From contig CANBWO010000010.1 of the NCBI GenBank assembly GCA_947373155.1, forward strand, positions 1 through 54,019: a stretch of DNA of 54,019 nt, given 5' to 3'. Source of the stretch: Microbacteriaceae bacterium. Lineage in GTDB: Bacteria; Actinomycetota; Actinomycetes; Actinomycetales; Microbacteriaceae. Positions within the stretch are counted from its first letter, which is position 1. Each line of letters opens with the position of its first letter. This document shows, piece by piece, positions 12,345 to 26,640 of the stretch. A program made the translations under genes and the position numbers. Under the pieces are notes generated by a model, which saw only the letters and a list, made by a program, of their open reading frames with translations, was not told the origin of the DNA and made no database searches.

Positions 12345-12420
12345 GCGTTTGTAGCTCAACGGATAGAGCATCTGACTACGGATCAGAAGGTTGGGGGTTC
12401 GAGTCCCTCCAAGCGCACCA
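12345..12420 (+). tRNA. tRNA-Arg (anticodon ACG); attachment site of the island
   Basis: Acceptor GCGTTTG pairs with CAAGCGC (one U-G pair), and the discriminator A is followed by an encoded CCA (12418-12420). The anticodon stem TCTGA/TCAGA encloses loop CTACGGA, anticodon ACG. The T loop TTCGAGT is normal. Its 3' 44 bp are the left copy of the att direct repeat, so the 3' end and its CCA were supplied by the integrated element. Confidence 0.95.
12375..12418. other. attL: left att core of the integrated island
   Basis: 44 bp running from the anticodon loop to the tRNA-Arg 3' end, identical to 26591-26634. The sequences differ on both sides of the repeat, which marks the site-specific recombination core. 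Confidence 0.92.
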
Positions 12421-12425
12421 AGCTG

Positions 12426-12450
12426 AAGCCCTGTATTTACGGGGCTTTTT
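12426..12450 (+). terminator. terminator after tRNA-Arg, supplied by the island
   Basis: AAGCCC and GGGCTT (12442-12447) form a stem followed by a T-run. The original chromosomal terminator now sits beyond attR at 26641. Confidence 0.8.
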
Positions 12451-12500
12451 GCTTTTTTGCTTCAGAGTCGACTCATTTAGAAATGGAAATCGTTCGGCAC

Positions 12501-12520
12501 ATTCCGTTTAGATTCCGTTT
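12501..12520. repeat. candidate integrase/excisionase arm sites, left end
   Basis: Two copies of ATTCCGTTT (12501-12509 and 12512-12520), 11 bp apart. The same word with the same spacing occurs at the right end (26465-26484). Confidence 0.6.
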
Positions 12521-12543
12521 GAGTTGAAGTTTTCATAAAAGAG

Positions 12544-12572
12544 TTATCGATTCAACGAATTTGTTTTATAGT
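12544..12572 (+). promoter_or_regulatory. candidate promoter of the AbiF-associated RNA
   Basis: TATAGT at 12567-12572 is a good -10; a 17-bp spacer leads back to TTATCG (12544-12549), a weak -35. Transcription would start near 12579. Confidence 0.45.
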
Positions 12573-12578
12573 GGAAGT

Positions 12579-12637
12579 AACAAACCCCGCCAGGGCTAGA
12601 GCGAAAGCTTCCCCAAGACCGGCGGGCTTTGCGTTTT
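12579..12637 (+). ncRNA. structured RNA upstream of the AbiF-like gene
   Basis: About 58 nt. An outer stem CCCGCC (12586-12591) pairs with GGCGGG (12621-12626). Inside, GGG (12593-12595) pairs with CCC (12611-12613), followed by GAGC-GAAA-GCTT with a GNRA tetraloop; AAGACC stays single-stranded. The 3' stem strand leads into a T-run (12634-12637), so it can also work as a terminator or attenuator in front of the toxin-like gene. Structured RNAs are known upstream of abiF genes (abiF RNA motif, from memory); membership was not tested. Confidence 0.65.
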
Positions 12638-12646
12638 AATGGGCTT

Positions 12647-13531
12647 GTGGATAAGCCGAGCCAAAACATCAACGAATTATTAGAGACCCTTTTCGAACGG
12701 GGTCTTCAAATTGACCCAACTAATAGGTTGGAGTTCACAAGATTTTTGTTGGATGTGAACTACTACCGAATTTCTGGGTACTGGAGATACTTTCAAGAGG
12801 CTCCCCATTTAGGCGACAATCGTTTCCGGGCGAACATTAATAGCGAATTAATATTGGAGGTTTATGAATTCGATAGTGGGCTACGAAGCATCTTGCTTGA
12901 GGGTCTAGCATCGTTTGAAATTGCACTCAGAGCTCGTTTTGCCTACTATTTCGCACAAAAGCTGGATCCATCCCTTTATGTCTCGAGGCAGATTTACGAA
13001 GAACTGGGGAAGTCGGTTAGCGAGGATTTCCAGCCGCTAGATAATTTGATGTCCTCCATGAGGACTGATTTAGAAAAATCAAAAGAACCCTTCATCGAGC
13101 GTTATAGGGACAAAGGTTTAAATCCACCAATATGGGTTGCCATCGAGGCGTTTTCGATGGGGACCGTTTCGAAGATGTACAAACTGCTCAAAAACGAAGA
13201 CATCAGGTATCAAGTTTCAAAAAGTTTTGCTTTGCCAGATCCGACTGTGGCTGAATCGATTTTTCGTTCGTTCACTCTACTTAGAAACGTTTGTGCACAT
13301 CATGGTCGAATTTGGAATCGTGTTCCCGACTACCCACATGTTGTTCTGAAAAAGCTAAAAGTTGATAAAGACAAAGAGATTTACCACCGCACTCCTTGGG
13401 CCTGGGTGGTTAGCCTTGCGGATTTGGTGGATGGAATAAACAGAAATTCCGACTACTCTAAGCTGCTCTTTGGATACATCGCACGATACCCAGAGTTCGA
13501 GGATGGTCTAAAGCACCCTCATAGTCGATAG
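12647..13531 (+). CDS. Abi_2/AbiF-like HEPN protein
   Basis: 294 aa from the GTG at 12647; a TTG at 12629 would put the start inside the RNA hairpin. Family features are LDVNYYRISGYWRYF near the N-terminus, YEFDSGLRSILLEGL and the HEPN RNase motif RNVCAHH (R-x4-H, about residues 213-218). Abi_2 proteins include lactococcal AbiD/AbiF abortive-infection factors; HEPN domains usually cut RNA. A structured RNA directly upstream suggests an RNA-antitoxin or guide-like partner. It is the first cargo gene after attL and convergent with the Zn-ribbon gene. Confidence 0.88.
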   Translation: MDKPSQNINELLETLFERGLQIDPTNRLEFTRFLLDVNYYRISGYWRYFQEAPHLGDNRFRANINSELILEVYEFDSGLRSILLEGLASFEIALRARFAYYFAQKLDPSLYVSRQIYEELGKSVSEDFQPLDNLMSSMRTDLEKSKEPFIERYRDKGLNPPIWVAIEAFSMGTVSKMYKLLKNEDIRYQVSKSFALPDPTVAESIFRSFTLLRNVCAHHGRIWNRVPDYPHVVLKKLKVDKDKEIYHRTPWAWVVSLADLVDGINRNSDYSKLLFGYIARYPEFEDGLKHPHSR

Positions 13532-13534
13532 TGT

Positions 13535-13553
13535 CCCACCGGGGAGCTTTCGC
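13535..13553. repeat. inverted partial copy of the AbiF-associated RNA, just after the stop codon
   Basis: The reverse complement of this 19-nt stretch reads GCGAAAGCTCCCCGGTGGG. The upstream RNA reads GCGAAAGCT(T)CCCC(AAGACC)GGCGGG at 12601-12626. Apart from one extra T, a 6-nt insertion and one C/T change they match. The abi gene is therefore flanked by imperfect inverted repeats, and the mRNA 3' end is complementary to the RNA. Confidence 0.6.
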
Positions 13554-13556
13554 ATG

Positions 13557-14213
13557 TCACCGGCCTATGTCAGTGAAAGAAAAATCTTGAGCCGATGGTA
13601 AGTCCTCGGCACGGCCGTCTTTGAAATAGATTGCTCGCTCAACCAGTGTGTTCATTTCATCCACACACATGCTTGCAAAGTACAACCAGTCGGATGAGGA
13701 TAAAAGCCCGTTCAGGGGACCGCCATTTATCGAAGCCTCGGCCCTGCGTGGGTCTGCGTGAAGAAGAAGACCATAAAGGTAATCAATAACAACGGTGTTT
13801 AGAGATCTTTCGTCTTTTATCCCATTGTTAACAAACTCAATCGGTGGCTTTAACTTGTTCGTGGTGAGCCGAGCTAAGTTACGCTCGATTTGGTCGCCTA
13901 GGCCCAAAGATTGGTATTCGTCGGGAAGTATGGCGAGGCAGGCTCTCAGGACTTTTGGGAGAAACACGTACTCCCTTGATTGCAGTATATATTTTCGAAG
14001 AACGGCGATGTGCAACTGCCTCAATGCCAGCTGGCCGTAATTCTCTGTGCCCACCCCCTCGACACTGCTAACAAGGGCCCTTTCTATTATTTTGTATTGG
14101 ATGTAAGTAGCACGGAAGAGGGCAATCGTCTCTACTTCCGAAATGGCACCTTTATCGGTCGGACCAATGGTGTGATCAAAGCCACACTGCGGACATGTGC
14201 ATTTATTTGTCAT
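13557..14213 (-). CDS. hypothetical protein with N-terminal Cys cluster
   Basis: 218 aa from the ATG at 14213, backed by GGAGAG upstream; a longer frame to 14285 has no ribosome site and lies inside the integrase. Residues 4-11 (KCTCPQCGF) form a short Zn-ribbon-like knuckle (C-x-C-x2-C) lacking a clear second pair. The rest is mostly helical. Its start overlaps the integrase stop by 11 bp, so the two are in one minus-strand operon. Function is not recognised; the place next to the AbiF-like gene, tail to tail, makes a regulatory or defence role possible. Confidence 0.7.
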   Translation of the reverse strand: MTNKCTCPQCGFDHTIGPTDKGAISEVETIALFRATYIQYKIIERALVSSVEGVGTENYGQLALRQLHIAVLRKYILQSREYVFLPKVLRACLAILPDEYQSLGLGDQIERNLARLTTNKLKPPIEFVNNGIKDERSLNTVVIDYLYGLLLHADPRRAEASINGGPLNGLLSSSDWLYFASMCVDEMNTLVERAIYFKDGRAEDLPSAQDFSFTDIGR

Positions 14214-15435
14214 TGTCGCTCTCTCCGAAAAGCTTTGAGTAAGACGACATCCACGCCGCTGCGTCGTCCTTGTAATAGTGGCCATACGTGTCCAAAGTCA
14301 TTTTGATCGAAGCATGTCCAAGAATCTGGCTGACCGTTGTGATCGGCGTTTGGAGTGCAATAAGCAAACTCGCACATGTGTGTCGCAAGGTGTGAATGGT
14401 TACACCGCTCAAACCAAGTTTCTTAGTTGCTGGGTCGAAGATTGCACGGCGAAAATACCCATAGTCAAGAGAGTCGCCAGCCGCACCGGTGAATAACCAG
14501 TCGGTCTCCCCCTTGCCTGTTATGGAGTCTTGAATTTCAATAAGTAGTTCTCTGCCAAGGGGGATGGTTCGAACCTCACGAGTTTTTGTTCTTCCCAGTA
14601 CCTTTTTCCCGCTAGCCGTTGCAGTCCAAGTTTTTGAAATGTGTACTGAAGAGGAATCAAAGTCGATGTCTTCAACTCGGAGTGCTAGTGCCTCATTAAT
14701 TCTTACCCCTGTCATCGCAAGGAACTTGATCAAAAGACCGTACTTTCCGCATTCACGAGCCAGAGTTAGGACCTGCTCCACAGTGAGGGCCTCAATCTTT
14801 TTCTTTGTAGCTTTGGGCAAGCGAATGCCAACGGCAGGGTTTCTAGTGATGCGTTCGTCGACTAGAGCAGACTCAAGAATTTGGTGGAGCAAGCGGTAGG
14901 ACTGTCGAATCGTTGTAGCTCCAACCGCCTTTGATTCGAGTTTCGAAACCCATTCACGAATGCTTGATGTGGATACGCCTAGCAGGGTTCTCTCTCCAAA
15001 AGCAGGGAGGATGTGATTCTTGAGCTGTGAATCGTAAGTGCCGAGTGTCTTACCTGAGACCGAAGCTTTAGTTGCACGCCAAGCTGCAGCGTATTGAGAG
15101 AACGACTGCTTTTGCTGATCTGGGTCCACCCAGGTTCCCAGTGACAACTGCACTTTGCCCTGTTCAAGCCAAGTGATGGCATCTGACAGGTTGCCGAACT
15201 TTTTTGAGGCCACTCCATTAGGGGTCACGAGTTCAGCCGACCATTCACGCTTTATCCGGCGAATCTCGACAGGGCAGCGTTCTAGATCAGCTTTGAGATT
15301 TCGCTGCCATCGTTGAGCTTCATAGATACGCTTGAAGTTTTTCGATTCTTCTTTGCCGTTGTGAAATACACGAGCTTGATATGCTCCTGGTGCGATTTGC
15401 TTGATGCCCGCATTGCGGTTTGCCAGTCTTGGCAT
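14203..15435 (-). CDS. int: tyrosine recombinase (integrase) of the island
   Basis: 410 aa. Arm-binding N-terminus (about 1-70), core-binding helical domain (about 110-190) and catalytic domain (about 215-400) with Arg in TGVRINEAL, Lys region KTREVRTIPL, HTLRHTCASLL (H-x-x-R), LGHAS (second His) and the nucleophile in TLDTYGHYY. It should recombine the 44-bp att cores in tRNA-Arg. AAGGAGA precedes the ATG. It sits about 1.8 kb inside attL, transcribed toward it, in an operon with the upstream HTH gene and the downstream Cys-cluster gene. Confidence 0.96.
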   Translation of the reverse strand: MPRLANRNAGIKQIAPGAYQARVFHNGKEESKNFKRIYEAQRWQRNLKADLERCPVEIRRIKREWSAELVTPNGVASKKFGNLSDAITWLEQGKVQLSLGTWVDPDQQKQSFSQYAAAWRATKASVSGKTLGTYDSQLKNHILPAFGERTLLGVSTSSIREWVSKLESKAVGATTIRQSYRLLHQILESALVDERITRNPAVGIRLPKATKKKIEALTVEQVLTLARECGKYGLLIKFLAMTGVRINEALALRVEDIDFDSSSVHISKTWTATASGKKVLGRTKTREVRTIPLGRELLIEIQDSITGKGETDWLFTGAAGDSLDYGYFRRAIFDPATKKLGLSGVTIHTLRHTCASLLIALQTPITTVSQILGHASIKMTLDTYGHYYKDDAAAWMSSYSKLFGESDNDK

Positions 15436-15444
15436 AAGTCTCCT

Positions 15445-16056
15445 TTAGTTGTGGTCCTTTATATCACTTGCCAATGACAAAGTCGCCTTCGGCAGCTGGC
15501 CGGATTTCCTTGCTCGGGTAATCCTGGTTTCAATCGTTAATGGGGAAATCTTTTGAAACTTGGCGATGTCCCGCACCTGTGTGCCCAGACCCAGCGACGT
15601 TGCCAATTGAAACTGCTGGATTGTTTGCTTCACGGGTGTGAGGTTCGACCTGAAGTGGTCTGTGAATCGATAAACGAGATGACGTAGAAAAAGCGAGCTT
15701 TTCTGTTCAGGCGATCGCCCCTCGAAGTATTCATTAAGCCCAGGTGTTGATCTTGCAATTCGCTCAGCCAAAGGGAATGCGTACTGCGAGGCGAAGTTCA
15801 GAAGTTCGGTATCAAGTTCAGATTTAGTAGTTGCTGCGATTGGAAGTTGAGCCTGGAACAGCATTGATAGGGCACCCTTTTCGTTGGGCCCAGAAACCCA
15901 CCAAGATGCTGTCCCGCAAGGCATGTGCCAGTCGATTTCAACGGTAGCGATGAGCTCGCCAGAAGCAAAAGCACCCGTGCTCGTGTCTGCCGCTAGCGAA
16001 CAACTCTCAAGAATCTCAATTTCCATTGCTAATGTCTTTCTAGTAATGACTGGCAT
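15445..16056 (-). CDS. hypothetical protein with C-terminal helix-turn-helix-like segment
   Basis: 203 aa, ending 9 bp before the integrase start, so first gene of the minus-strand integrase operon. The N-terminal half is not recognised. The C-terminus (VRDIAKFQKISPLTIETRI, then TRARKSGQLPK) looks like the HTH found in many small actinobacterial regulators that act on mobile elements. The start may instead be the ATG at 16026; neither has a good ribosome site. Possible role: regulator of integrase or of the divergent excisionase-replication operon. Confidence 0.65.
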   Translation of the reverse strand: MPVITRKTLAMEIEILESCSLAADTSTGAFASGELIATVEIDWHMPCGTASWWVSGPNEKGALSMLFQAQLPIAATTKSELDTELLNFASQYAFPLAERIARSTPGLNEYFEGRSPEQKSSLFLRHLVYRFTDHFRSNLTPVKQTIQQFQLATSLGLGTQVRDIAKFQKISPLTIETRITRARKSGQLPKATLSLASDIKDHN

Positions 16057-16111
16057 TTCTATAAATCCCAGTCTAGCAACAATTCACGAAGAAATCATTA
16101 GGAGGCCACAA

Positions 16112-16309
16112 ATTAGCCAAATTTATTCAGATCAGTTTCTCAGCTGCGAACAGCTCGCAACTCGTTGGAACAAACCAGTCAAGTGGGTTTACTCAAACTG
16201 GCGTCACCTGGAACTGCCCGTTATGCGTTTGGGACAACAAATTCGATTTCCACTTTCGGCAATTGAAGCTTGGGAGTTCTCAAAGATTCATCTTGGAGAG
16301 GGCAACTAG
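16112..16309 (+). CDS. excisionase-like HTH protein with apparent ATT start
   Basis: 65 aa. The sequence SCEQLATRWNKPVKWVYS, then LPVMRLGQQIRFPLSAIEAWE fits the AlpA/Xis-type HTH_17 fold (helix-turn-helix, wing, final helix). A perfect AGGAGG (16100-16105) is placed 6 nt before an in-frame ATT at 16112, and no ATG, GTG or TTG lies in frame between that site and the domain. An ATG at 16046 would extend it into the divergent gene with no ribosome site. It would direct excision and heads the replication operon. Confidence 0.65.
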   Translation: MSQIYSDQFLSCEQLATRWNKPVKWVYSNWRHLELPVMRLGQQIRFPLSAIEAWEFSKIHLGEGN

Positions 16310-16312
16310 AGA

Positions 16313-16492
16313 ATGACAGCCTACTCACCTTTTATTACCCAAGTCCTATTTTGTATGGACCGCTCAGTTATGAACAACGAAGTACGAATCACCCTTGAAA
16401 GCCCATGCCTAAAGGGATCTTCCACTGATTCTTGCTCGCCAACCGCTCACCTAACTTTTGGTTCACAGAAAGTGGGGAACGCCCGTGGATAA
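16313..16492 (+). CDS. possible small protein between excisionase and replication protein
   Basis: 59 aa, ATG 3 nt after the excisionase stop, ending in an overlap with the GTG start of the replication protein (GTGGATAA). Tight spacing on both sides favours translational coupling, but the protein is rich in Ser/Thr and matches nothing I recognise. It may simply be a leader that keeps ribosomes moving into the next gene. Confidence 0.35.
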   Translation: MTAYSPFITQVLFCMDRSVMNNEVRITLESPCLKGSSTDSCSPTAHLTFGSQKVGNARG

Positions 16493-18455
16493 CCTGCAGA
16501 TCGCTCTCAAATGGGCCTCTCTTGGTATTCCAGTCTTTCCGTGTCACAACAGCGATGGTTGGAAGGACGGGAAAGAGGTCTCAATGAAAGCTCCAATCCC
16601 ACCCCACGGCTTCAAGCAATCGACCACTGATCCTGAGGCTATCAAAATTTGGTGGACCGAAAACCCAGACGATTTGGTTGGCCTCTACGTAGGAACCGAC
16701 TTAGTTGTCTTAGACATCGATGTAAGCACAGAGAAGAACAAGGATGGCTGGTACAGCCTTGAGCAACACGGACTGATTCCACCGGAAACCTTCAATGTAA
16801 TTACTCGAAGTGGCGGAAGTCACTACTTCTACCGCAACCCTAATGGTCTCAAGTTAGGACCAACAGTCGGGGTGAAACTCCCTGATGGTCAAGTCATCGA
16901 AGATGTAGACCGTCGTGCAGGTGGTTCATACGTCATTGCTTGGTCTGAAAGTGTCCCTGCATCCCTAGATGAACTCGCACCACTGCCAGATTGGCTTGCC
17001 GTACCTGCCGGGAACTATGCCGAAAAAGGTTTCTCAGGATCGACCGAAGAGTGGTTCAAAAACCTCAAAAAAGGCCTTCCAACACCACTCGTTGTTTATG
17101 TAAAGAAAAAGCTCCCACTCGATGACATCAATCACCAGCAACTGCTTTCGATAACCGCCAATTTGGTCTCTCTAGGAAGCTCAGGTGAGTGCGGTGTCGA
17201 GGAGGCAATCGCCCAATTCAAGGCTCTCTATCTGGAGGAGCCATACAACCAAACCAAGTATCAGAAAGCCTTCGACAATGCACTCGAAGGAGCAATCAAG
17301 AAATATGGAGGATCGTCACAAATGACACCAGAAGAAGAACGTCAGTCAAAAATCGACCTAAAGGTTGAAGAACTAGAGATTCGCATGGAGGCTGAGCGAA
17401 TCGTTGGATCAAAGAACTTTGAAGGTTCACAGGTTCTAACTTGGGACGACTTAGCTGAAGCAGACCGTGCCGAAATCGTCGGCTCTTTGGTGCCTTGGCA
17501 AGGACTAGCCATGTTGGTTGGCGATAGCAACATTGGAAAGACTTTTTGCTATCTAGACATGTGCTGTCGCATTGCCCTAGGCCAAACATGGCTTGGCAAG
17601 CCAACCCAGCAAGTGAAAATCCTGCTTGTCCTCGGTGAAGGTAAGTCGGGGTTTCTCTCAAGATTCGAGTATTGGTGTGAGTACTACGGCTATGACATCG
17701 AGTTGATCAAACCCTGGTTCTACTTCATCGATGGAGGAAACCTGAACTCAGATCAATCCATTGACCTAATCCGAGAACACGCCACACAAAACGACTGTCA
17801 GCTGGTTATCTACGACACTTGGGCCGCTAACTCTGGGGTGGCAAACGAGAACGATGCAGCACTGACAGCCATGACCGTAAGCCGCATGCTCACAAAGATG
17901 CCTACTCTCTCGCACCTAGTGATCCACCACCCAACAAAGGAGTCGGGCAAGAAAACTGCCCCTAACCCTCGAGGCTCAGGTGCTCTACCTGCTGCCGCTG
18001 ACGTAGTCATGGTTCTTTATTACGACAAAGATGCAAAGAAGACCTTGGGTGCCACGCACACTTGGGTCGCACTATCAACCGAGACGTCGCACAACGGTAA
18101 GAACCGTAATGCTCAGACCGAAACGATTCGTGGGCTTCGACTCAAAGAGTTCGCAGCCAAAAAACTTGTCTGGTTCTACGAGGACGCAACAAAGACTAAA
18201 AAGTCCGTTGCGAATATTAAGACCCACTTGAAACCGAACATGACCGTGAAAGATTACGCATTGGCCGCCGGGGTCTCACAAACTACGGCTCAACGTGAAT
18301 TGACTGAAGCTGTTGAGTTGGGCATTGCGGAGGCGTCAAAACCAAAGGCAAAGAACCAAGGTGTCAAATACAGCCCTGCAGCTCCAAAGGATTTGGCAAT
18401 TAGCCCTGAATCAAACTGGGCTGCGTTGGCCGCATCAGCTGAGGAGGCAATTTAA
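16485..18455 (+). CDS. replication protein: prim-pol primase fused to RecA-fold helicase/ATPase
   Basis: 656 aa from the GTG at 16485. The N-terminal bifunctional primase-polymerase domain (about 5-190) shows PPHGFKQSTTD, the metal-binding LVVLDIDVS and SGGSHYFYRN. The central RecA/AAA_25 domain (about 335-520) has Walker A GDSNIGKT and Walker B QLVIYDTWAANSG. A C-terminal HTH follows (YALAAGVSQTTAQREL). This RepA/P4-alpha-like plan is typical of proteins that start and unwind replication of plasmids, integrative elements and phage satellites. It overlaps the next gene (TAATG). Confidence 0.88.
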   Translation: MDNLQIALKWASLGIPVFPCHNSDGWKDGKEVSMKAPIPPHGFKQSTTDPEAIKIWWTENPDDLVGLYVGTDLVVLDIDVSTEKNKDGWYSLEQHGLIPPETFNVITRSGGSHYFYRNPNGLKLGPTVGVKLPDGQVIEDVDRRAGGSYVIAWSESVPASLDELAPLPDWLAVPAGNYAEKGFSGSTEEWFKNLKKGLPTPLVVYVKKKLPLDDINHQQLLSITANLVSLGSSGECGVEEAIAQFKALYLEEPYNQTKYQKAFDNALEGAIKKYGGSSQMTPEEERQSKIDLKVEELEIRMEAERIVGSKNFEGSQVLTWDDLAEADRAEIVGSLVPWQGLAMLVGDSNIGKTFCYLDMCCRIALGQTWLGKPTQQVKILLVLGEGKSGFLSRFEYWCEYYGYDIELIKPWFYFIDGGNLNSDQSIDLIREHATQNDCQLVIYDTWAANSGVANENDAALTAMTVSRMLTKMPTLSHLVIHHPTKESGKKTAPNPRGSGALPAAADVVMVLYYDKDAKKTLGATHTWVALSTETSHNGKNRNAQTETIRGLRLKEFAAKKLVWFYEDATKTKKSVANIKTHLKPNMTVKDYALAAGVSQTTAQRELTEAVELGIAEASKPKAKNQGVKYSPAAPKDLAISPESNWAALAASAEEAI

Positions 18456-18811
18456 TGTATCGAAAGTATGGCGACACTTGGTTTGATGACCAGTTTGCGG
18501 TTCCATCGTTGAGCTCAATCTTGATTGGGGATGCACAGTATCGTGCAAAAGAAGGCAACAAGGTGCTCTACGGATTTGAATCAAAAGAGTGGACTATCCA
18601 AGCGAACCTAGACTTCCATGACGATGTTGTTGATCTTTCGTTTCAGATGGAATTGAAAGCCGGTTGTGAGTTCTACTACAAAGAATCTCGAATTGAAGGG
18701 CTCCCGTTAGTGGCGGCTTTAGAAAAAGCAGCTACTGTCTTGGATTTCTTAGGAATCGATACTATTTCCTGGATTACGTCGATTCCCAGACGCGAGCCAG
18801 GAGTCTTCTAG
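18455..18811 (+). CDS. hypothetical protein of the island
   Basis: 118 aa, ATG overlapping the replication protein stop, so co-translated with it. It contains a beta-rich middle (WTIQANLDFHDDVVDLSFQM) and a helical C-terminus ending at a conserved-looking WITSIPRREPG. No family recognised. Its tie to the replication gene suggests an accessory replication or copy-control role, but this is only inference. Confidence 0.6.
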   Translation: MYRKYGDTWFDDQFAVPSLSSILIGDAQYRAKEGNKVLYGFESKEWTIQANLDFHDDVVDLSFQMELKAGCEFYYKESRIEGLPLVAALEKAATVLDFLGIDTISWITSIPRREPGVF

Positions 18812-19002
18812 TGCTCCATTTTGCCACGGGTTGATTTTGGTGATTTCTCTTGTTTGTAAATGGAAACCGCCGGATCCCAGTGTTTATAAGGGTGTTGCAA
18901 CGTAAGAAATTGTTTTCATTTTTTCCCATAGAACACGGAAAACGTGGAGCAACTCTGAATGTCAGAGGTTCAGCAGATACTTTTCGAGTCTGGCTTGTTG
19001 CG

Positions 19003-19023
19003 GAAGGGCAAACCACGCCCTTC
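19003..19023. promoter_or_regulatory. hairpin or operator upstream of hsdM
   Basis: GAAGGGC, 7 nt, GCCCTTC is a perfect 7-bp inverted repeat 32 bp before the hsdM start, without a T tail. The rest of the 244-bp gap 18812-19055 shows nothing else I can name. It could be a terminator-like attenuator or a repressor site delaying restriction on entry. Confidence 0.45.
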
Positions 19024-19055
19024 GGCTAGCCTTAGATTTGAATAGTAGGGGAATG

Positions 19056-21008
19056 ATGTCCGAGACGAACAATGCCGCTTTTATCTGGTCGATCGCAAAC
19101 CTTTTGCGAGGCACCTACAAGCCAGCTGACTATGGAAAAGTCATCCTGCCGTTCACTGTACTCAGAAGGCTTGATAGTGCCTTGGAGGCCTCTAAAACCA
19201 AGGTTCTCGAAGAGTTCGGTAAGAATAAGAACGCCGGAGCCGCTCTCGACTTCTTATTGCAAAAAGCGTCTGGTTATAGTTTCTACAACACCTCACCGTA
19301 CGACCTAAAAAAGGCCGCAGGTGACACCACGAACTTGAAGGCAAACCTGCTCGCCTACATTGAAGGATTTTCTTCTAATGTGCGAGACATCTTTGAGCGT
19401 TATGACTTCACAGTTCAGCTGAACAAACTTGATGAAAACGATCTGTTGTTACTCGTTACACAGAAGTTTTCGAGCATCGACTTGCACCCAGAAACGGTTT
19501 CAAACGTCGAGATGGGGCTTATTTTTGAGGAGCTAATTCGCAAGTTCGCTGAAGCTTCAAACGAAACTGCTGGTGAGCACTTCACGCCTCGAGATGTTGT
19601 TCGTTTGATCGTCAACTTACTCTTCGCTACTGACGATGAGGTGCTCAGTAAGCCGGGTGTTGTACGCAGCGTATACGACCCTACAGCGGGCACAGGAGGC
19701 ATGTTGTCGGTAGCCGACGAGTACATTCGCCACCTAAACCCAGAAGCTCGCCTGACGCTTTTTGGGCAGGAATTAAACGGTGAATCGTTTGCCATCGCTA
19801 AGGCAGACATGGTCATCAAAGGCCAAGATATCGAAAACATGGTTTGGGGAGACACACTTACCAACGACGGCCACCATGGCAAACACTTTGATTACTGCCT
19901 AGCAAATCCTCCCTTTGGAGTGGAGTGGAAAAAGCAGCAGCCTCTTGTTGAGAGAGAGCACAAAGATCGTGGATTTGACGGTCGCTTTGGTCCCGGAACA
20001 CCTCGAGTTTCCGACGGATCGCTTCTCTTCCTATTGCACTTAGTAAAGAAGATGCGTCCAACTTCTCAAGGTGGCGGTCGTTTAGGAATTGTTTTGAATG
20101 GTTCACCGCTGTTCACCGGTGGAGCAGGTTCAGGCGAATCTGAAATTCGCAAGTATTTGCTCGAACAAGATCTAGTTGAGGCAATCGTCGGTCTCCCTAA
20201 AGACATGTTCTACAACACCGGCATAGCCACCTACATTTGGATCTTGAGCAACCATAAGTCATCCGAAAGAAAAGGCAAAGTTCAGCTCATCGATGCCACC
20301 AGCGAGTTTGAGAAACTTCGCAAGAACCTCGGCGACAAGAGGGCCGAAATTGGGCCAGAAAACCTGAGGCGGATCGTCAAATTTTATGGCGACTTCGAAG
20401 AAAACGAACAATCGAAAATCTTCAATACAACCGACTTCGGCTACACCACAATCACCGTTGAACAGCCACTGCGACTTTCGTGGGCGTTAACTCCTGAAAG
20501 AATCGCTTCAGCCCTGCAGGCTAAAGCATTCGAGAAGCTCTCGCCTGGGGAGCGAATCAAACTTGAAGATGCACTAAACGCAGAATCAGCAAATAGCACG
20601 GCTACCACAACCGATTCAGCAGCATTCACAAAGCGAATCCAAAACGCCGTGTCCGGCCTCGGGCTCTCAGCCAGCCGGATAAAGAACCTGGTGGCTGGAC
20701 TCGCTGAGCATGATGACAACGCACCGTTAGTGAAGGATGCCAAAGGCAACCTAGTGGCTGATGCGTCGCTGCGTGACACAGAGAATGTGCCGCTAGAGTT
20801 CGATATCGAGGCTTATGCAGCGAAAGAAATCCAACCTCACCTAGCTGATTTCTGGCTGGACAGGTCGAAAGACAAAGTTGGATACGAGATCCCGTTCACT
20901 CGCCATTTCTATAAGTACGAAGCCCCTCGCCCACTTGAAGAAATTGACGCCGACCTAAACAAACTGATTTCAGAAATCTCGAAGCTTCTAAAAGAGATTG
21001 AAAATTGA
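19056..21008 (+). CDS. hsdM: type I restriction-modification DNA methyltransferase subunit HsdM
   Basis: 650 aa N6-adenine methyltransferase. HsdM_N helical domain (about 1-140), SAM-binding motif DPTAGTGGM and catalytic motif IV ANPPFG. HFTPRDVVRLIVNLL is the usual type I signature. With HsdS it methylates the host recognition site. The ATG at 19056 follows AGGGGA; earlier starts at 19038 and 19053 are possible. It begins a four-gene operon and its TGA overlaps the hsdS TTG. A long C-terminal helical tail ends in LNKLISEISKLLKEIEN. Confidence 0.95.
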   Translation: MSETNNAAFIWSIANLLRGTYKPADYGKVILPFTVLRRLDSALEASKTKVLEEFGKNKNAGAALDFLLQKASGYSFYNTSPYDLKKAAGDTTNLKANLLAYIEGFSSNVRDIFERYDFTVQLNKLDENDLLLLVTQKFSSIDLHPETVSNVEMGLIFEELIRKFAEASNETAGEHFTPRDVVRLIVNLLFATDDEVLSKPGVVRSVYDPTAGTGGMLSVADEYIRHLNPEARLTLFGQELNGESFAIAKADMVIKGQDIENMVWGDTLTNDGHHGKHFDYCLANPPFGVEWKKQQPLVEREHKDRGFDGRFGPGTPRVSDGSLLFLLHLVKKMRPTSQGGGRLGIVLNGSPLFTGGAGSGESEIRKYLLEQDLVEAIVGLPKDMFYNTGIATYIWILSNHKSSERKGKVQLIDATSEFEKLRKNLGDKRAEIGPENLRRIVKFYGDFEENEQSKIFNTTDFGYTTITVEQPLRLSWALTPERIASALQAKAFEKLSPGERIKLEDALNAESANSTATTTDSAAFTKRIQNAVSGLGLSASRIKNLVAGLAEHDDNAPLVKDAKGNLVADASLRDTENVPLEFDIEAYAAKEIQPHLADFWLDRSKDKVGYEIPFTRHFYKYEAPRPLEEIDADLNKLISEISKLLKEIEN

Positions 21009-22285
21009 TCGAGACTAAAGACTCTGAAATCGAATGGATAGGTCCGGTACCTGTTCAATGGCAAGTCAAGCCACTCTTTGCCACTGGGAATCAGGTGCGA
21101 GCCAGGAATAGCCTCGGGCAAAACGCAAACCTACTTAGTCTCAGCTACGGTGAAATTAAAGAGAAGGACATTGATTCGACCGAAGGTTTGCTACCCGAAT
21201 CATTTGATACTTACCAAGAAATCAAACCTGGAGACCTAGTTTTTAGGTTTACCGATTTGCAGAATGACAAGCGTAGCTTGCGTTCTGCCGTAAATAGCTA
21301 CTCTGGGATTATCACGTCGGCCTACTTGGCTTTCCGGCCAAACAAAATTGATTCCAAATACTTGGGATACCTGATGAGGTTTTACGATACAACTAAGGTC
21401 TTCTACTCAATGGGCAGCGGCCTAAGACAATCCCTCAAATACGCAGACGTTCGCCGGATGCCTGTTCTCCTGCCGCCCATGGGAGAACAGAAGGCAATCG
21501 CTACCTTCCTAGACCGAGAGTTAGGTCAAATTGACTTACTAATTGAGAGAGAACAGCAACTACTCGCCACACTGGGATTACGCAGACAAGCCCTTATAAC
21601 TTCTTGCGTAACCAAAGGACTTGACTCTGACACCGACATGCACCCTTCCGATGTTTCATGGTTGGGAAATATCCCCAAGCATTGGAATCTAACCCCACTT
21701 AAATATTTGGTTGGCCTAAATGTCACAACACTTTCAGACGGTACGCCTGATGATTTTGAGTTCAACTACATAGAGATATCTGACGTCACTAAAGAAGCCG
21801 GGGTTTCCAGTTGGAGTCGACAACGTTTTGACGATGCCCCATCACGAGCCCGAAGAAGAGTCGAGCCAGGTGATGTTTTAGTTTCAACAGTCCGAACCTA
21901 TTTAAGAGCTGTTGGAATGGTACCTCCCGAAAACGAAATCCCTTTCATAGCTTCCACTGGCTTTGCAGCGTTAAGTCCCAAAAAAATTGCTGCTGATTTC
22001 CTCAATTTCGCACTTACTGCGGAACACTTTGTGTCACAGGTGGAGGCAGCATCAACAGGCATTAGCTATCCAGCGATAAATGCGTCAGATCTAGTTTCCA
22101 TCTCCATACCCGTGCCACCTGCTCATGAGCAGGAGGAGATTGCCTCTTATCTAAAGGAGAAGCTTGCAAGACTTGACGAGCTTGTGAGTGCATCATCGAG
22201 AGCAATAGACCTGCTGCGTGAACGCAAAAGCACGCTGATAAGTGCTGCAGTGACTGGAAAGATCGAAGTTCGGGGGAAGAACTAA
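21005..22285 (+). CDS. hsdS: type I restriction-modification specificity subunit HsdS
   Basis: 426 aa, TTG start inside the hsdM stop (TTGA). Two target-recognition domains (about 10-160 and 215-370) are each followed by a conserved helix: MGEQKAIATFLDREL in the centre and HEQEEIASYLKEKL at the C-terminus. This is the normal two-TRD plan that sets a bipartite DNA target. The two TRDs look unrelated in sequence, so an asymmetric target is expected. The hsdR ATG overlaps its stop (TAATG). Confidence 0.94.
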   Translation: MIETKDSEIEWIGPVPVQWQVKPLFATGNQVRARNSLGQNANLLSLSYGEIKEKDIDSTEGLLPESFDTYQEIKPGDLVFRFTDLQNDKRSLRSAVNSYSGIITSAYLAFRPNKIDSKYLGYLMRFYDTTKVFYSMGSGLRQSLKYADVRRMPVLLPPMGEQKAIATFLDRELGQIDLLIEREQQLLATLGLRRQALITSCVTKGLDSDTDMHPSDVSWLGNIPKHWNLTPLKYLVGLNVTTLSDGTPDDFEFNYIEISDVTKEAGVSSWSRQRFDDAPSRARRRVEPGDVLVSTVRTYLRAVGMVPPENEIPFIASTGFAALSPKKIAADFLNFALTAEHFVSQVEAASTGISYPAINASDLVSISIPVPPAHEQEEIASYLKEKLARLDELVSASSRAIDLLRERKSTLISAAVTGKIEVRGKN

Positions 22286-25200
22286 TGGCCGACTACAACG
22301 AATACAAATTTGAGATTGAGCTTTGCGAAGCACTTGAAGCTTCTGGCTGGTTTTATTCGAAAACGGATAAAGGCTACGACAAAGACTTAGCTCTATTTCC
22401 GGAAGATGTTCTTGCTTGGCTTGGCGAGAGCCAAGCAACAGAATTTGCCAAACTGGTTAAGCCGACTGACGCCCAGCCACAAAAAGATAAGGCTATGAAG
22501 GCTTTGGTGCAACGACTTGCCAAGTCCTTGGATGGGAATCTCTCCCAAGGTGGCGGAGCTTTGAATGTTTTGCGTTCCGGCTTCAAAGATGGTTCGGCAA
22601 AGTTTGAGATGTGTCAGTTCAAGCCTGCTGATAATTTGAACCAAACCACTCTTGAGAAGTATTCGAAGGTTCGGCTCAGAGTGATGCGTCAAGTGCATTA
22701 CTCAACTAAGAACAACAAGAGCATCGATCTAGTTCTATTCGTTAACGGCATCCCAGTTGCCACCATCGAGCTCAAAACGGACTTCACTCAAAGTGTTGAG
22801 GATGCAGTCAACCAATACAAGCGAGACAGAGATCCAAAAGGTGAGCCTTTGCTCTCATTCGGGCATAGAGCGTTGGTTCACTTCGCTGTCTCGAACTCCG
22901 AGGTTTACATGACCACCAAGTTGGCTGGCGAAAAGACTTACTTCTTGCCATTCAACATGGGCAATGAAGGTCGAGCCGGAAACCCAATCAATCCAGAAGG
23001 TTCAAAAACCTCTTACCTTTGGGAGCAAGTCTTCCAAAGAGATAACTGGTTGCAGATTATCGGCCGCTTCATGCACCTGAGTATCGAAAACATTGTTGAC
23101 CCAGTAACCGGTGAACAATCCAAACGAGAAAGCCTCTTGTTCCCTCGGTACCACCAGTGGGAGTCTGTAACCAAACTCATTGAGACCGCAAAGGTTGAAG
23201 GCCCAGGCCATCGCTACCTTATTCAACACTCTGCAGGGTCAGGCAAAACAAACTCAATCGCTTGGACTGCTCACCAGCTATCCACGTTGCACAATGATGC
23301 AGGCAACAAGGTATTCGATTCGGTCATAGTCGTTACCGATAGAACCGTCCTTGATGACCAACTGAGTTCAGCAATTCAACAAATCGACCACAAAACAGGC
23401 GTAGTAGCAGCAATAACTAACAAGCAAGGTTCGAAGTCTGGGGCGCTCGCCGAAGCCCTGTCACAAGGTAAGCCGGTCATTGTTGTGACTATGCAGACAT
23501 TCCCCTTCATCCTCGGTCAAATTCAGGAGTCGGCAGCTGCGAAGGGTAAAAACTTTGCGATCATCGCTGACGAGGCACACTCATCGCAAACTGGCAACAC
23601 AGCAAGCAGCCTCAAGAAGGTTCTGAGTGATGAGGACTGGAAGTCACTCCAAGATGGCGGAGACTTTGATGTTGAAGACCTCTTGGCTGCTGAGATGGCC
23701 AATAGAGCAGAACCAAGCAACATCAGCTTCTTCGCTTACACGGCTACGCCCAAGGCAAAGACGATGGAGTTGTTTGGACGCATCAAAGACGGGGAGGAGT
23801 TTCCTTCGCCGTTCCATGTTTACACGATGCAACAGGCAATCGAAGAGGGCTTCATCCTCGATGTCTTGAAGAACTACACCCCTTACAAACTGGCATTCAA
23901 GTTGACTCACAACGGCCAAGAATACGATTCAGATGGCCCACAAGTAGCCCAGAGCGAGGCACTGAAAGAGCTAATGTATTGGGTACGCTTGCACCCAACA
24001 AACATTGCATCAAAAGTCTCAATCATCATCGAACACTTCAGAGAAAACGTTGCTTGGCGTTTAGATGGCAAAGCCAAAGCGATGGTCGTAACCGGCTCCC
24101 GAAAAGAAGCTGTTCGATACAAACTAGCCTTCGATGACTACATCGCAAAGCATGGGTATAAGGATGTCAACGCAATGGTTGCATTCTCAGGAGAGATTGA
24201 CGAACCTGAGATAAGCCCAGTGCCGTTCAACGAAAACAACATGAACCCTGGTCTAAGAGGCCGAAAACTTGCCTCAGCATTCGCTACTGATGAATACCAG
24301 GTGATGTTAGTTGCTAACAAGTTCCAAACAGGATTCGATCAACCTCTTCTAGTTTCTATGTACGTCGATAAGAAACTCTCGGGAGTTACTGCAGTTCAGA
24401 CCCTTTCACGTCTAAACCGAACAGCAAAAGGCAAAGATGCGACCTTCATTCTGGACTTTGTGAATGAACCGTCAGACATCCTCGAAGCGTTTGAACCCTA
24501 TTTCAAAGGCGCAAAACTGGCAGACATCACTGACCCCAACCTTGTTCATGACATCGCAACGAAACTCGATCACTCAGGAATCTATGACATGAGTGAAGTT
24601 GAAGAAGTTGCCCGGGTCTTCGTGCAGAAGAAGGGGAATAATAAACTCTCGGCATCCCTCGCCCAGGTTAAGGACCGCTTCTGGAAAAAGTGGAAGGCCG
24701 CTGAGACTTCTGGTAACCGTATGGAACTTGATGGGCTAGAGGACTTCAGAAAGAGTGTTGATGCTTTCACCAAGACCTATGACTTCTTGTCGCAGCTCTA
24801 TAACTACGATGACACCGATCTCGAGAAGCGTTCCATTTTCCTCAGGCTCCTAGCAAGAGAAATTAGAGCTGGATCGAGAAGCACTGACATCGATTTGGCT
24901 GGCGTTGAACTAACCAAACTTGGCTTCAAGAAATCCGAAACAACAGCGATCAACCTTGCTGGTGAAGAAGGGTCACTAAAGCCACTCACAGCTGTCGGTT
25001 CCGGAAAAGCATACGATCCGGTCATGACTTCACTTCGTGAGGCCATTGAACAGATGAACTCGCTCTTTGACGCCGAGGAACTCACCACTGGAGACTTTGA
25101 AGGCTTCATCACTTATGTGACTGCTAAAGCTTCTGAGGACCAAAAAATCACAAAGCAGGCAACTTCTGGTAACACCCTGGAACAGTTCCTGGAGAGCCCT

Positions 25201-25350
25201 GACCTCAAAACAGTGTTACTTACAGCAATCCTCGCCTCAGGGGACAACCTTAAGGCGATGGGCGAAGAAGTGCTAGGTGACGAGGTAAAACTTGCACGAC
25301 TGGTGAAAATCATCGGCAAAGTTCTACACTCTAAACTTTCTGCAATTTAA
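22285..25350 (+). CDS. hsdR: type I restriction endonuclease/translocase subunit HsdR
   Basis: 1021 aa, normal length. An N-terminal nuclease domain (about 90-200; GIPVATIELKTDF supplies the E-x-K of the PD-(D/E)xK site) is followed by a superfamily 2 motor with Walker A HSAGSGKTNSIAW, DEAH box IIADEAHSSQTG, motif III FAYTATPKAKT and motif VI-like QTLSRLNRT. It cuts unmethylated DNA after ATP-driven translocation. It appears intact. Confidence 0.95.
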   Translation: MADYNEYKFEIELCEALEASGWFYSKTDKGYDKDLALFPEDVLAWLGESQATEFAKLVKPTDAQPQKDKAMKALVQRLAKSLDGNLSQGGGALNVLRSGFKDGSAKFEMCQFKPADNLNQTTLEKYSKVRLRVMRQVHYSTKNNKSIDLVLFVNGIPVATIELKTDFTQSVEDAVNQYKRDRDPKGEPLLSFGHRALVHFAVSNSEVYMTTKLAGEKTYFLPFNMGNEGRAGNPINPEGSKTSYLWEQVFQRDNWLQIIGRFMHLSIENIVDPVTGEQSKRESLLFPRYHQWESVTKLIETAKVEGPGHRYLIQHSAGSGKTNSIAWTAHQLSTLHNDAGNKVFDSVIVVTDRTVLDDQLSSAIQQIDHKTGVVAAITNKQGSKSGALAEALSQGKPVIVVTMQTFPFILGQIQESAAAKGKNFAIIADEAHSSQTGNTASSLKKVLSDEDWKSLQDGGDFDVEDLLAAEMANRAEPSNISFFAYTATPKAKTMELFGRIKDGEEFPSPFHVYTMQQAIEEGFILDVLKNYTPYKLAFKLTHNGQEYDSDGPQVAQSEALKELMYWVRLHPTNIASKVSIIIEHFRENVAWRLDGKAKAMVVTGSRKEAVRYKLAFDDYIAKHGYKDVNAMVAFSGEIDEPEISPVPFNENNMNPGLRGRKLASAFATDEYQVMLVANKFQTGFDQPLLVSMYVDKKLSGVTAVQTLSRLNRTAKGKDATFILDFVNEPSDILEAFEPYFKGAKLADITDPNLVHDIATKLDHSGIYDMSEVEEVARVFVQKKGNNKLSASLAQVKDRFWKKWKAAETSGNRMELDGLEDFRKSVDAFTKTYDFLSQLYNYDDTDLEKRSIFLRLLAREIRAGSRSTDIDLAGVELTKLGFKKSETTAINLAGEEGSLKPLTAVGSGKAYDPVMTSLREAIEQMNSLFDAEELTTGDFEGFITYVTAKASEDQKITKQATSGNTLEQFLESPDLKTVLLTAILASGDNLKAMGEEVLGDEVKLARLVKIIGKVLHSKLSAI

Positions 25351-25359
25351 GGGGCGATA

Positions 25360-26463
25360 TTGGCAGGTGAACACAAATGGCTATTTGAAAGCGAACGCAA
25401 AAAGCCAAACATTCACAATCAGTATTGCCTTAATGTTCGACGTGGGGATTTTGAACAGGCAGAACTGGCAAGAACAAGAATTTCTAAGTGGTTCGAAGAC
25501 TGGGATGACCATTCGGACGCCCACCTTTTGCAAGGCTTGAATTCGCCCCTTGACGAACAGTTCATTAGTTCCGTTTGGGAACTATACGTTAATACACTTC
25601 TAAAGCGGCTCGGCTTTGAGGTGACCCGCCTAAAACAGGCTTCATCTGGTACTAATCCCGACTTTCGGGTAGCTGGGAACGGCTCTACTTTTTTTGTGGA
25701 AGCATCGGCCATATACAAGGAAACTAGTGCTGCAGATAAAATCTGGACCCAGATCAGACATAATTTAAGCACAATTGTGAGTACTACATTGGGGTTTGCA
25801 ATCCGCCCTGAGAAGATGTCTGCGACTGCTCCAAAGTCCAGCGATCTTCGAAATCGAATAATTAAGTTTCTTGGTTCGGTTCAGGATCCCAAAAACATAA
25901 CATTGACGAATTCGCCGGAAGATTCCATTGAACTCGGTGAATGGTCATTTAGAGTCAATGCGTGGCCTCATCCACAACCGGATATTGAATCTAAGGCAAT
26001 GTTGTTGACCGGCATGGGCGAGGCGGGGTTAGTCACAGATCAGCAGGACCTTAAAGCCAAGTTAAAAACGAAAAGTGGCCACTATAAAAATCTAGAGCAC
26101 CCACTACTACTTGCAATTCTTGAAAACAGTTTTGTTGCAGGGACTGATAATTGGCATCGTATGGGTGCCTTGTTCGGCAGTGAAGCGATACGAATCCCAA
26201 AGGATGGAATCGGTGAGGCCGAGAGCTTTAGGCAGGCTGACGGGTTTTGGGATCTGAATAAGGGAAATAGAAAAGTAAGTGCGATTCTTCTAACTGGTCG
26301 CCTCGAGGTTCAATGGGATCAACTTCCTCTGCCATCTGTCTGGATAAATCCGATCGGAGAACGTGAAATAACGTCTAGCCCCTTGGATCGTCTTAGGTCT
26401 TACAAAGTAAATGGGTTTGAAGTTGAGGAAACCTCAGGAGACTTTGAATGGGATGGCCTATAG
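25360..26463 (+). CDS. fourth gene of the hsd operon, PD-(D/E)xK-like protein of unknown function
   Basis: 367 aa, TTG at 25360 with AAGGGG just upstream, 9 bp after hsdR; same operon. Residues about 75-120 (WELYVNTLLKRLGFEVTRL, then TNPDFRVAGNGSTFFVEAS) fit the core of a restriction-endonuclease fold: helix with Glu, PD, strand with E-x-A. The usual catalytic Lys after the Glu is replaced by Ser, so activity is uncertain. The rest is unrecognised. It ends 127 bp before attR. Possible accessory nuclease or restriction-alleviation factor. Confidence 0.65.
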   Translation: MAGEHKWLFESERKKPNIHNQYCLNVRRGDFEQAELARTRISKWFEDWDDHSDAHLLQGLNSPLDEQFISSVWELYVNTLLKRLGFEVTRLKQASSGTNPDFRVAGNGSTFFVEASAIYKETSAADKIWTQIRHNLSTIVSTTLGFAIRPEKMSATAPKSSDLRNRIIKFLGSVQDPKNITLTNSPEDSIELGEWSFRVNAWPHPQPDIESKAMLLTGMGEAGLVTDQQDLKAKLKTKSGHYKNLEHPLLLAILENSFVAGTDNWHRMGALFGSEAIRIPKDGIGEAESFRQADGFWDLNKGNRKVSAILLTGRLEVQWDQLPLPSVWINPIGEREITSSPLDRLRSYKVNGFEVEETSGDFEWDGL

Positions 26464-26464
26464 A

Positions 26465-26590: not shown

Positions 26591-26634
26591 AACTACGGAT
26601 CAGAAGGTTGGGGGTTCGAGTCCCTCCAAGCGCA
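26591..26634. other. attR: right att core of the island
   Basis: 44 bp identical to the 3' part of tRNA-Arg (12375-12418). This is the displaced original 3' end; it is followed by GAAAG rather than CA, so the original tRNA gene did not encode CCA. Confidence 0.92.
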
Positions 26635-26640
26635 CGAAAG

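What the first reader, a model, noticed from the sequence alone, without database searches (positions are those of the whole stretch)
12579..13553. AbiF-like HEPN gene with upstream structured RNA and an inverted partial copy after the stop
The gene has a clear R-x4-H HEPN motif and is preceded by a compact RNA (outer CCCGCC/GGCGGG stem, inner GNRA hairpin, T-run). Directly after the stop, 19 nt read as the reverse complement of the RNA 3' half apart from one extra T, a 6-nt gap and one change. The mRNA 3' end could pair with the RNA, giving self-inhibition, RNA sponging or a decoy. HEPN plus RNA pairs are relevant because AbiF-type systems have been proposed as relatives of Cas13 (recalled, not checked).
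Basis: partly seen in the sequence, partly recalled or inferred. Interest (0 to 1): 0.75.

Follow-up and report, generated by a model that had tools for sequence, protein, structure and literature searches.

The report
AbiF toxin with RNA antitoxin
A bacterial mobile element carries an AbiF-type RNA-cutting suicide gene guarded by a small folded RNA of a branch that the public RNA model misses, and near relatives of that RNA sit alone, without the toxin gene, in phages, often just before a tRNA, which hints that phages use them to disarm the toxin.

Summary
The gene (12647-13531) is a genuine AbiD/F (Abi_2) HEPN protein: Pfam E 7.6e-47, RNVCAH motif, predicted fold matching PbAbiF bound to its ncRNA (8vz6). 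The RNA (12586-12626) is real: a covariance model built without the window finds it at 55 bits, and it precedes Abi_2 genes in Rhodococcus, Mycolicibacterium, Nocardia and others. It shares the abiF RNA layout but is a branch (extra hairpin, CUA bulge) that Rfam RF03085 does not detect. Best reading: an AbiF type III-like toxin/RNA-antitoxin module, carried with a type I restriction system on a 14.2-kb integrative element in tRNA-Arg. The 19-nt inverted partial copy after the stop exists, is at best mildly unlikely by chance and was not found downstream of 17 relatives tested; a sponge or self-inhibition role is not supported. Unexpected: this RNA, and canonical abiF RNA, stand alone in phages. 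Of 15 phage records tested, 0 have Abi_2; in 9 of 15 the RNA ends 3-6 nt before a tRNA; one copy is identical to two Nocardia antitoxin RNAs. Decoy antitoxin RNAs released by tRNA processing are the likely meaning, untested. An abiF RNA in a cyanophage was already in print, without this interpretation.

The parts
12586..12626 (+). abiF-type RNA ('type B', my label): P1 CCCGCC/GGCGGG, A, P2 GGG/CCC, CUA bulge, P3 GAGC/GCUU with GAAA loop, 3' linker CAAGACC
   Evidence: R1 (built from L010-L013, L018, window left out) 55.1 bits, E 1.7e-10; pair counts; identical in L203
12627..12637 (+). U-rich tail after P1 (CTTTGCGTTTT), probable RNA 3' end; T-rich stretch at the same place in relatives
   Evidence: interrupted T-run, and the terminator scan called nothing here
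12567..12572 (+). possible -10 hexamer TATAGT, expected start of RNA near 12579-12580 (inferred)
   Evidence: read; the consensus scan found no promoter here
12647..13531 (+). abiF/abiD-like gene (Abi_2, HEPN), 294 aa, GTG start preferred over TTG 12629
   Evidence: PF07751 E 7.6e-47; PADLOC AbiD E 3.2e-52; model pLDDT 87.7, Foldseek 8vz6_A E 1.3e-11, TM 0.73
13283..13300 (+). HEPN active-site motif R213-N-V-C-A-H218
   Evidence: R213, N214, C216, A217, H218 invariant in the 9 aligned proteins; the only R-x4-H in the protein
13535..13553 (-). gapped inverted partial copy of the RNA 3' half; probably chance or a relic
13557..14285 (-). convergent ORF, 242 aa, no Pfam, PADLOC or NCBIfam match
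14203..15435 (-). tyrosine integrase of the element
   Evidence: PF00589 E 3.7e-25
15884..16309 (+). ORF with weak helix-turn-helix match (possible excisionase/regulator)
   Evidence: HTH_17 E 4e-4, below the cut-off
16458..18455 (+). Prim-Pol / AAA replication protein
   Evidence: PF09250, PF13481
19038..25350 (+). type I restriction-modification genes hsdM, hsdS, hsdR
12375..12421 (+). attL-like repeat inside tRNA-Arg(ACG) 12345-12420
   Evidence: 47-nt direct repeat; ARAGORN
26592..26638 (+). attR-like repeat, 98% identical over 47 nt; no tRNA gene called there

Best explanation
It is an AbiD/F (AbiF-type) toxin with its own RNA antitoxin, a type III-like toxin-antitoxin and abortive-infection module, carried as defence cargo beside the attachment site of a 14.2-kb integrative element. 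Mechanism: a short RNA of about 45-60 nt starts near 12579 and ends in the U-rich tail after the CCCGCC/GGCGGG stem. It binds the HEPN protein and blocks its active site. Some transcripts read through and give the mRNA of the toxin, so antitoxin is normally in excess. When infection stops host transcription the RNA falls, the HEPN RNase is freed and the cell stops growing. Shown here: protein family and fold, conserved HEPN motif, conserved RNA structure, the order RNA - T-rich tail - gene. Inferred, from published AbiF and other type III systems: RNA size and ends, binding, toxicity, read-through, trigger. The RNA branch is a new variant; the inverted piece behind the gene plays no demonstrated part.
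For: Pfam/PADLOC; nearest solved structure PbAbiF with ncRNA by sequence (E 3.4e-19) and fold. An RNA model made without the window finds it at 55.1 bits. Pairs with changes on both sides: 3 of 13 (2 of 500 shuffles as high); 99.7% of cells paired and covariation score 0.116 (0 of 500 each). Of 28 distinct bacterial loci with the RNA (30 rows less duplicates L184 and L247), 19 have an Abi_2 relative after it; ten of those 19 (the window and nine found by protein) have it by construction, and of the 16 found by RNA pattern 9 do. The start codon lies 18-25 nt after P1 in 12 of 14 loci listed. Published: RCd22 neutralises AbiFCd in cis and in trans by direct RNA-protein contact, and stem disruption abolishes neutralisation (PMC12373285: abstract, section 7, passages).
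Against: RF03085 does not score the window RNA even at E 10. 9 of 28 loci with the RNA show no Abi_2 relative in the stretch held (tblastn, five queries). In the pair counts the number of further pair types is no higher than in shuffles (4; mean 4.2; 496 of 500 as high), and ten of 13 pairs never vary on both sides. The window's T-run is interrupted and no terminator or promoter was called. The fold of the RNA alone is only modestly stable. No expression, binding or toxicity data exist for this locus.
Confidence: 0.85

Rival explanations
1. The RNA is only a cis-acting leader (attenuator or translational switch, as proposed for lactococcal AbiD1) and not a trans-acting antitoxin.
For: The RNA and its T-rich tail end within about 25 nt of the start codon in 12 of 14 loci; AbiD1 has a regulatory 5' UTR (PMC12373285, passage).
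Against: The same RNA occurs with no Abi_2 gene found behind it in phages and bacterial contigs; RCd22 works in trans as well as in cis (PMC12373285).
Confidence: 0.1
2. The inverted partial copy 13535-13553 is functional: the 3' end of the mRNA pairs with the RNA and acts as sponge, decoy or self-inhibitor.
For: Predicted duplex -37.6 kcal/mol against a shuffle mean of -28.2 (7 of 300 as good); joint fold 5.5 kcal/mol below the two separate folds.
Against: Not found downstream of 17 relatives with a gene and a 300-nt flank (reverse-complement scores 6.0-9.6, highest L245; L203 7.0; window 10.5). Weak chance statistics.
Confidence: 0.04
3. The inverted piece is chance similarity or a decayed antisense remnant of an abiF RNA between two convergent genes.
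For: Lies in the 25-nt gap between the convergent stop codons (13531 and 13557); CM score at most 3 bits; no conservation; with a 150-nt flank 136 of 1402 real stretches score as high.
Against: Several tests give chance values of 0.001-0.01.
Confidence: 0.9
4. The system is RNA-guided in the manner of Cas13, with the RNA choosing targets.
For: AbiD/F is placed near the Cas13 HEPN domains in print (PMC12165695, PMC12373285, passages).
Against: No variable guide stretch: the window and L203 share 41 of 41 nt while their proteins are 49% identical; published AbiF lacks RNA-targeting specificity (PMC12948488, passage).
Confidence: 0.02

Closest known systems
PbAbiF-ncRNA (PDB 8vz6)
   Same: Abi_2 HEPN protein of similar length and predicted fold (TM 0.73), R-x4-H motif, ncRNA partner
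   Different: 20% identity in the structural alignment; its RNA was not compared here
AbiFCd / RCd22 of Clostridioides difficile phi027 and phiC2
   Same: RNA upstream of the gene, CCCGCC/GGCGGG outer stem, premature termination then gene (PMC12373285)
   Different: RCd22 holds two canonical RF03085 motifs and a separate terminator hairpin (PMC12373285); the window has one motif with an extra hairpin, and its T-rich tail follows P1 directly
Rfam RF03085 abiF RNA
   Same: outer 6-bp stem, A, short inner stem, CAAA-type 3' linker, place before Abi_2 genes
   Different: the loop CUCUC is replaced by a CUA bulge plus a 4-bp hairpin; not detected by the model
Pseudo-ToxI of phage PhiTE (for the phage orphan copies)
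   Same: phage-encoded mimic of an RNA antitoxin (PMC5449768, passage)
   Different: another toxin family; PhiTE escape mutants expanded the pseudo-ToxI region, whereas these are mostly single structured RNAs, many before tRNAs
abiF sRNA of cyanophage S-CREM1 (PMC9964418)
   Same: RF03085 match (51.6) in a lytic phage genome, reported 2023
   Different: no link to AbiF antitoxin function or to counter-defence in the passages read

Membership tests
AbiD/F (Abi_2, PF07751) | profile match over the curated cut-off | tested here: met
   160.4 bits against 25.6
AbiD/F (Abi_2, PF07751) | HEPN R-x4-H motif | tested here: met
   RNVCAH at residues 213-218; key residues invariant in the 9 aligned proteins. 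A tenth protein not in that alignment, L188, has Q for the R
AbiD/F (Abi_2, PF07751) | fold of PbAbiF | tested here: met
   8vz6_A the only PDB match at E <= 0.001
abiF RNA RF03085 | score over the gathering threshold | tested here: not met
   no match in the window; none in type B loci L009, L019, L021, L026, L031, L203 or L009-L013, L015
abiF RNA (wider kind) | P1/P2 architecture, linker and place before an Abi_2 gene | tested here: met
Type III toxin-antitoxin | RNA binds and neutralises the protein toxin | not testable with these tools
   published for AbiFCd and, as cited in reviews read in passages, PbAbiF
Type III toxin-antitoxin | antitoxin RNA gene directly upstream, separated by a terminator | tested here: inconclusive
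   order met; the T-run is interrupted, no terminator was called at 12626 and transcription is not measured
Type VI CRISPR-Cas13 | two HEPN motifs, CRISPR array, guide RNA | tested here: not met
   one R-x4-H in 294 aa; no repeat array in 12560-13660 and no family of more than 3 copies of 18 nt or longer in 12300-54019

The most novel reading that the evidence does not exclude
Phages carry stand-alone abiF antitoxin RNAs, both the window's branch and the canonical one, as counter-defence. Many are set directly in front of tRNA genes so that RNase P cutting of the tRNA leader releases the RNA, and they neutralise AbiF toxins of the kind seen in this window. Basis: 15 phage records (13 complete-genome records of the phage collection, 2 IMG/VR contigs), 0 with PF07751 while the phiC2 control is positive; gap to the next tRNA 3-6 nt in 9 of 15; outer-stem changes largely compensated while the inner motif is mostly kept; the L098 phage copy is identical to the RNAs before Abi_2 genes in Nocardia L196 and L248. 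Ten further viral contigs with the canonical RNA also show no Abi_2 (0 of 10; they may be fragments).
Probability: 0.6. Interest if true: 0.8.

Novelty: new variant of a known kind. Interest (0 to 1): 0.52.

Why it matters
The locus adds an actinobacterial branch of the AbiF antitoxin RNA that the public model misses; in the five plasmid records seen, the gene is named 'Abi family protein' and nothing is annotated over the RNA. More important, searches started from that RNA exposed gene-less copies, mostly unannotated, in cultured phages of Mycobacterium, Gordonia, Arthrobacter (weak), Acinetobacter, Rhizobium and Synechococcus. If they are decoys, RNA mimicry of an antitoxin is a recurrent way past AbiF, the group held to be ancestral to Cas13, and it gives one concrete reason why some phage tRNA arrays hold extra small RNAs. 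Both points can be tested with laboratory strains.

Tried and rejected
Rfam RF03085 on the window at gathering and at E 10: no match. The search for related loci with the single protein in genome contigs and viral contigs: no relative, probably because patterns from one sequence are too specific; tblastn on plasmids and the genome search replaced it. MAFFT alignments of mixed RNA types (A2, A3) misplaced the 3' stem and were dropped for a model built on five sequences of equal linker length. The genome pattern gave 87 stretches, of which the 80 returned as loci were searched. L051 (E 0.0015, no Abi gene) is probably chance but was left in the pair counts. Loci fetched by that pattern fix part of the 5' half and add little covariation; the P1 changes come from L018/L184, L208 and L021, of which L018 and L021 were found by protein. 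L019 and L026, which look type B by eye, were given to R1 and did not reach E 0.01. Type B is patchy: R1 at E <= 0.01 in 9 of 396 genomes of the order, and in the window's own genome alone of 394 (class sample) and 396 (phylum sample), with strict filters that lose weak matches. Rejected: Cas13-like guiding; a functional 3' copy; a second RNA on the minus strand. Not built: a model of the third RNA type; alignment A7 of it failed.

Full report
What is there. The ORF 12629-13531 encodes an Abi_2 protein (PF07751, 160.4 bits, E 7.6e-47; PADLOC names it AbiD, E 3.2e-52). Most homologues listed begin at a GTG or ATG 18-25 nt after the RNA, so GTG 12647 is the likelier start (starts in pattern-found relatives are my assignment). 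R213-N-V-C-A-H218 (13283-13300) is the HEPN motif and the only R-x4-H in the protein: R213, N214, C216, A217 and H218 are invariant in an alignment of the window and 8 relatives with 28-49% identity to it. A further relative, L188, has Q in place of the R and a missing stretch. The closest solved chain is PbAbiF with ncRNA, 8vz6 (phmmer E 3.4e-19); an AlphaFold2 model (mean pLDDT 87.7, pTM 0.86) finds 8vz6_A as its only PDB match at E <= 0.001 (E 1.3e-11, TM 0.73).

The RNA. Rfam RF03085 (abiF RNA, 37 positions) does not match the window. Reading upstream of the five nearest homologues on Rhodococcus and Mycolicibacterium plasmids showed a closely similar 40-41-nt RNA in each. A covariance model, R1, built from five relatives without the window finds 12586-12626 at 55.1 bits, E 1.7e-10. 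On 25 distinct sequences, 99.7% of cells pair, 3 of 13 pairs carry changes on both sides (2 of 500 shuffles as high) and 0 of 500 shuffles reach the covariation score; further pair types are no more than in shuffles. Ten pairs never change on both sides, so support is positive but from a narrow set. The layout P1 (CCCGCC/GGCGGG), A, P2, 3' linker is that of the phiC2 abiF RNA seen; the difference is a CUA bulge plus a hairpin P3 where canonical RNAs have a CUCUC loop. In L203 (Micrococcaceae MAG) the RNA is identical, 41 of 41 nt, although the protein is 49% identical. Of 28 distinct bacterial loci with the RNA (30 rows less duplicates L184 and L247), 19 have an Abi_2 relative behind it, ten of them by construction; of the 16 found by RNA pattern, 9 do. 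In one (L204) a transposase gene (PF10551, PF00872) lies between RNA and Abi gene.

Distribution. Abi_2 relatives at E <= 0.001 occur in 91 of 396 genomes of the order sample; R1 at E <= 0.01 in 9 of 396, one of which (G394, L051) is probably chance. Among the 59 genomes searched first, the window's own included, 4 match by protein; the one other same-genus genome (G004, L003) carries an AbiF with a canonical RNA, 44.6 bits. The organism itself is not named by any search; a small-genome actinobacterium is my inference.

The inverted copy. The 19 nt 13535-13553 lie in the 25-nt gap between two convergent stop codons. The match is real: 12 of 13 in the core. How improbable it is depends on the test: 121 of 20000 flank shuffles, 143 of 20000 RNA shuffles, 2 of 2108 real stretch/strand cases; gap-tolerant 13 to 117 of 4000 shuffles on one strand, 41 to 234 of 4000 on either, and 26 of 4208 to 136 of 1402 real stretches, by flank length. 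It was not found in 17 relatives with an Abi gene and 300 nt of downstream sequence: scores 6.0-9.6 against 10.5. The full model scores the spot at 3 bits or less. The predicted duplex with the RNA is stronger than in most shuffles (7 of 300 as good), which is the same similarity seen again. I read it as chance or a relic.

The element. A 47-nt repeat of the tRNA-Arg(ACG) 3' part recurs at 26592-26638, enclosing 14.2 kb: the abiF unit, an integrase, a Prim-Pol/AAA protein and hsdM, hsdS, hsdR. The abiF unit is the first cargo next to attL.

Orphan RNAs in phages. Two IMG/VR contigs (L098, L055) have the RNA at 63.1 and 52.4 bits with no Abi gene found, each a few bases before a tRNA. BLAST of a 40-nt relative found full-length copies in Gordonia phage Syleon and Mycobacterium phages Aegeus and Baudelaire (11 of its 15 records were short partial matches); R1 gives 56.9 and 50.7 bits in Syleon and Aegeus. 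In Syleon it lies before tRNA-Gly, in Aegeus before tRNA-Phe inside a long tRNA array. BLAST of the window's own RNA found no clear copy in phages. A canonical 36-nt query hit 74 phage records at E <= 10, 48 with at least 80% coverage, 60 of the 74 from Mycobacterium; at E <= 1, 61 records, 53 from Mycobacterium; a canonical variant gave 15 records, two with at least 80% coverage. Of eleven records examined from these searches (nine, two), ten reach the RF03085 gathering score of 37 (Acj61 58.0, S-SZBM1 55.7, Thibault 54.9, Lolly9 45.3, Aziz 42.9, DyoEdafos 41.1, Bromden 40.5, ctMEh928 40.0, Wanda 39.7, RHEph21 38.0) and Arthrobacter phage Mimi does not (33.0). PF07751 is absent at E <= 1 from all 15 records tested; the control phiC2 gives 168 bits. 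Gaps from stem end to the next tRNA: Syleon 4, Aegeus 4, L098 4, L055 3, S-SZBM1 5, Lolly9 5, DyoEdafos 5, Bromden 5, Aziz 6; not adjacent: Thibault 270, Wanda 271, Mimi about 84, RHEph21 73, Acj61 and ctMEh928 without an annotated tRNA in the stretch shown. A rough chance estimate for a gap of 0-5 nt is 0.0002-0.017 per record, from tRNA counts that I entered by hand over the locus or, for Syleon, the genome; Aziz at 6 nt falls just outside that bin, and Bromden and DyoEdafos are one genus. Outer-stem changes are largely compensated (8 of 10 canonical phage copies have 6 of 6 pairs, G-U counted, two have 5 of 6) while the inner motif AAGCCTCTC..GATGCTCAAA is mostly kept. The copy in L098 equals the RNAs of L196 and L248 (Nocardia), both followed by Abi_2 relatives. 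Against the decoy reading: none of this is expression or function; the records could hold remnants of a lost AbiF unit or an RNA with another task; 6 of 15 are not next to a tRNA.

Literature. PMC12373285 (abstract, section 7, passages): RCd22 neutralises AbiFCd in cis and trans by RNA-protein contact. PMC12737573, PMC12948488, PMC12165695 (passages): AbiF as type III toxin-antitoxin and/or relative of Cas13. PMC9964418 and PMC12197685 (passages): an abiF sRNA in cyanophage S-CREM1, exact role unconfirmed; the former counts 136 bacterial and three phage genomes with it in Rfam. PMC5449768 (passage): pseudo-ToxI mimicry. In the listings of searches and the passages above I saw no paper proposing phage abiF RNAs as anti-AbiF decoys; listings were capped, most subscription papers are outside the library, and the Cell 2025 AbiF paper (recalled) was not read.

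Verdict. The locus is a well-supported AbiF toxin/RNA-antitoxin module with an RNA branch missing from the public model; the inverted copy is not shown to be a feature. The wider result, toxin-less abiF RNAs in phages, often before tRNAs, is the part worth bench work.

Noticed in passing
L259 2001-2040 (Syleon), L260 2001-2042 (Aegeus), L098 3780-3819, L055 120-159 minus strand: Stand-alone type B abiF RNAs in phages, 3-4 nt upstream of a tRNA, with no Abi_2 match in the record.
   Followed up: yes
L261, L262, L263, L264, L265, L266, L267, L279, L280, L281, L282: Stand-alone canonical abiF RNAs in phages of Mycobacterium, Acinetobacter, Synechococcus, Rhizobium, one uncultured podovirus and (below threshold) Arthrobacter; five end 5-6 nt before a tRNA; none of these 11 records has an Abi_2 match.
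   Followed up: partly
L004 2224-2262, L029 2232-2268, L033 2225-2263, L040 2209-2236 and 2356-2390 (minus strand): A third conserved hairpin RNA (CCGGTTCCGC..GTCCAGGGCCGG then T-run) upstream of Abi_2 genes, two in L040; the four loci gave no Rfam match at gathering.
   Followed up: partly
L227, L224, L231, L222, L238, L047, L048: Type B RNAs, most with a T-rich tail, but no Abi_2 relative found behind them in the bacterial contigs held; L222 has an AbiEii gene (PF08843) 2 kb on. Solo antitoxin RNAs or remnants.
   Followed up: partly
L240 7340-7379 (Mycolicibacillus koreensis): Type B RNA inside an array with 31 tRNA genes; no Abi_2 match in the genome searched.
   Followed up: partly
window 12375-26638: 14.2-kb integrative element in tRNA-Arg(ACG) with integrase, Prim-Pol/AAA protein and a type I restriction-modification system.
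   Followed up: partly
L188 5791-6564 (Curtobacterium sp. 'Ferrero'): Abi_2 relative of 258 residues with Q where the HEPN arginine stands and a missing inner stretch; probably inactive, beside an intact-looking type B RNA.
   Followed up: partly
window 25360-26463: 367-aa ORF at the right end of the element, after hsdR, without a Pfam or NCBIfam match.
   Followed up: no
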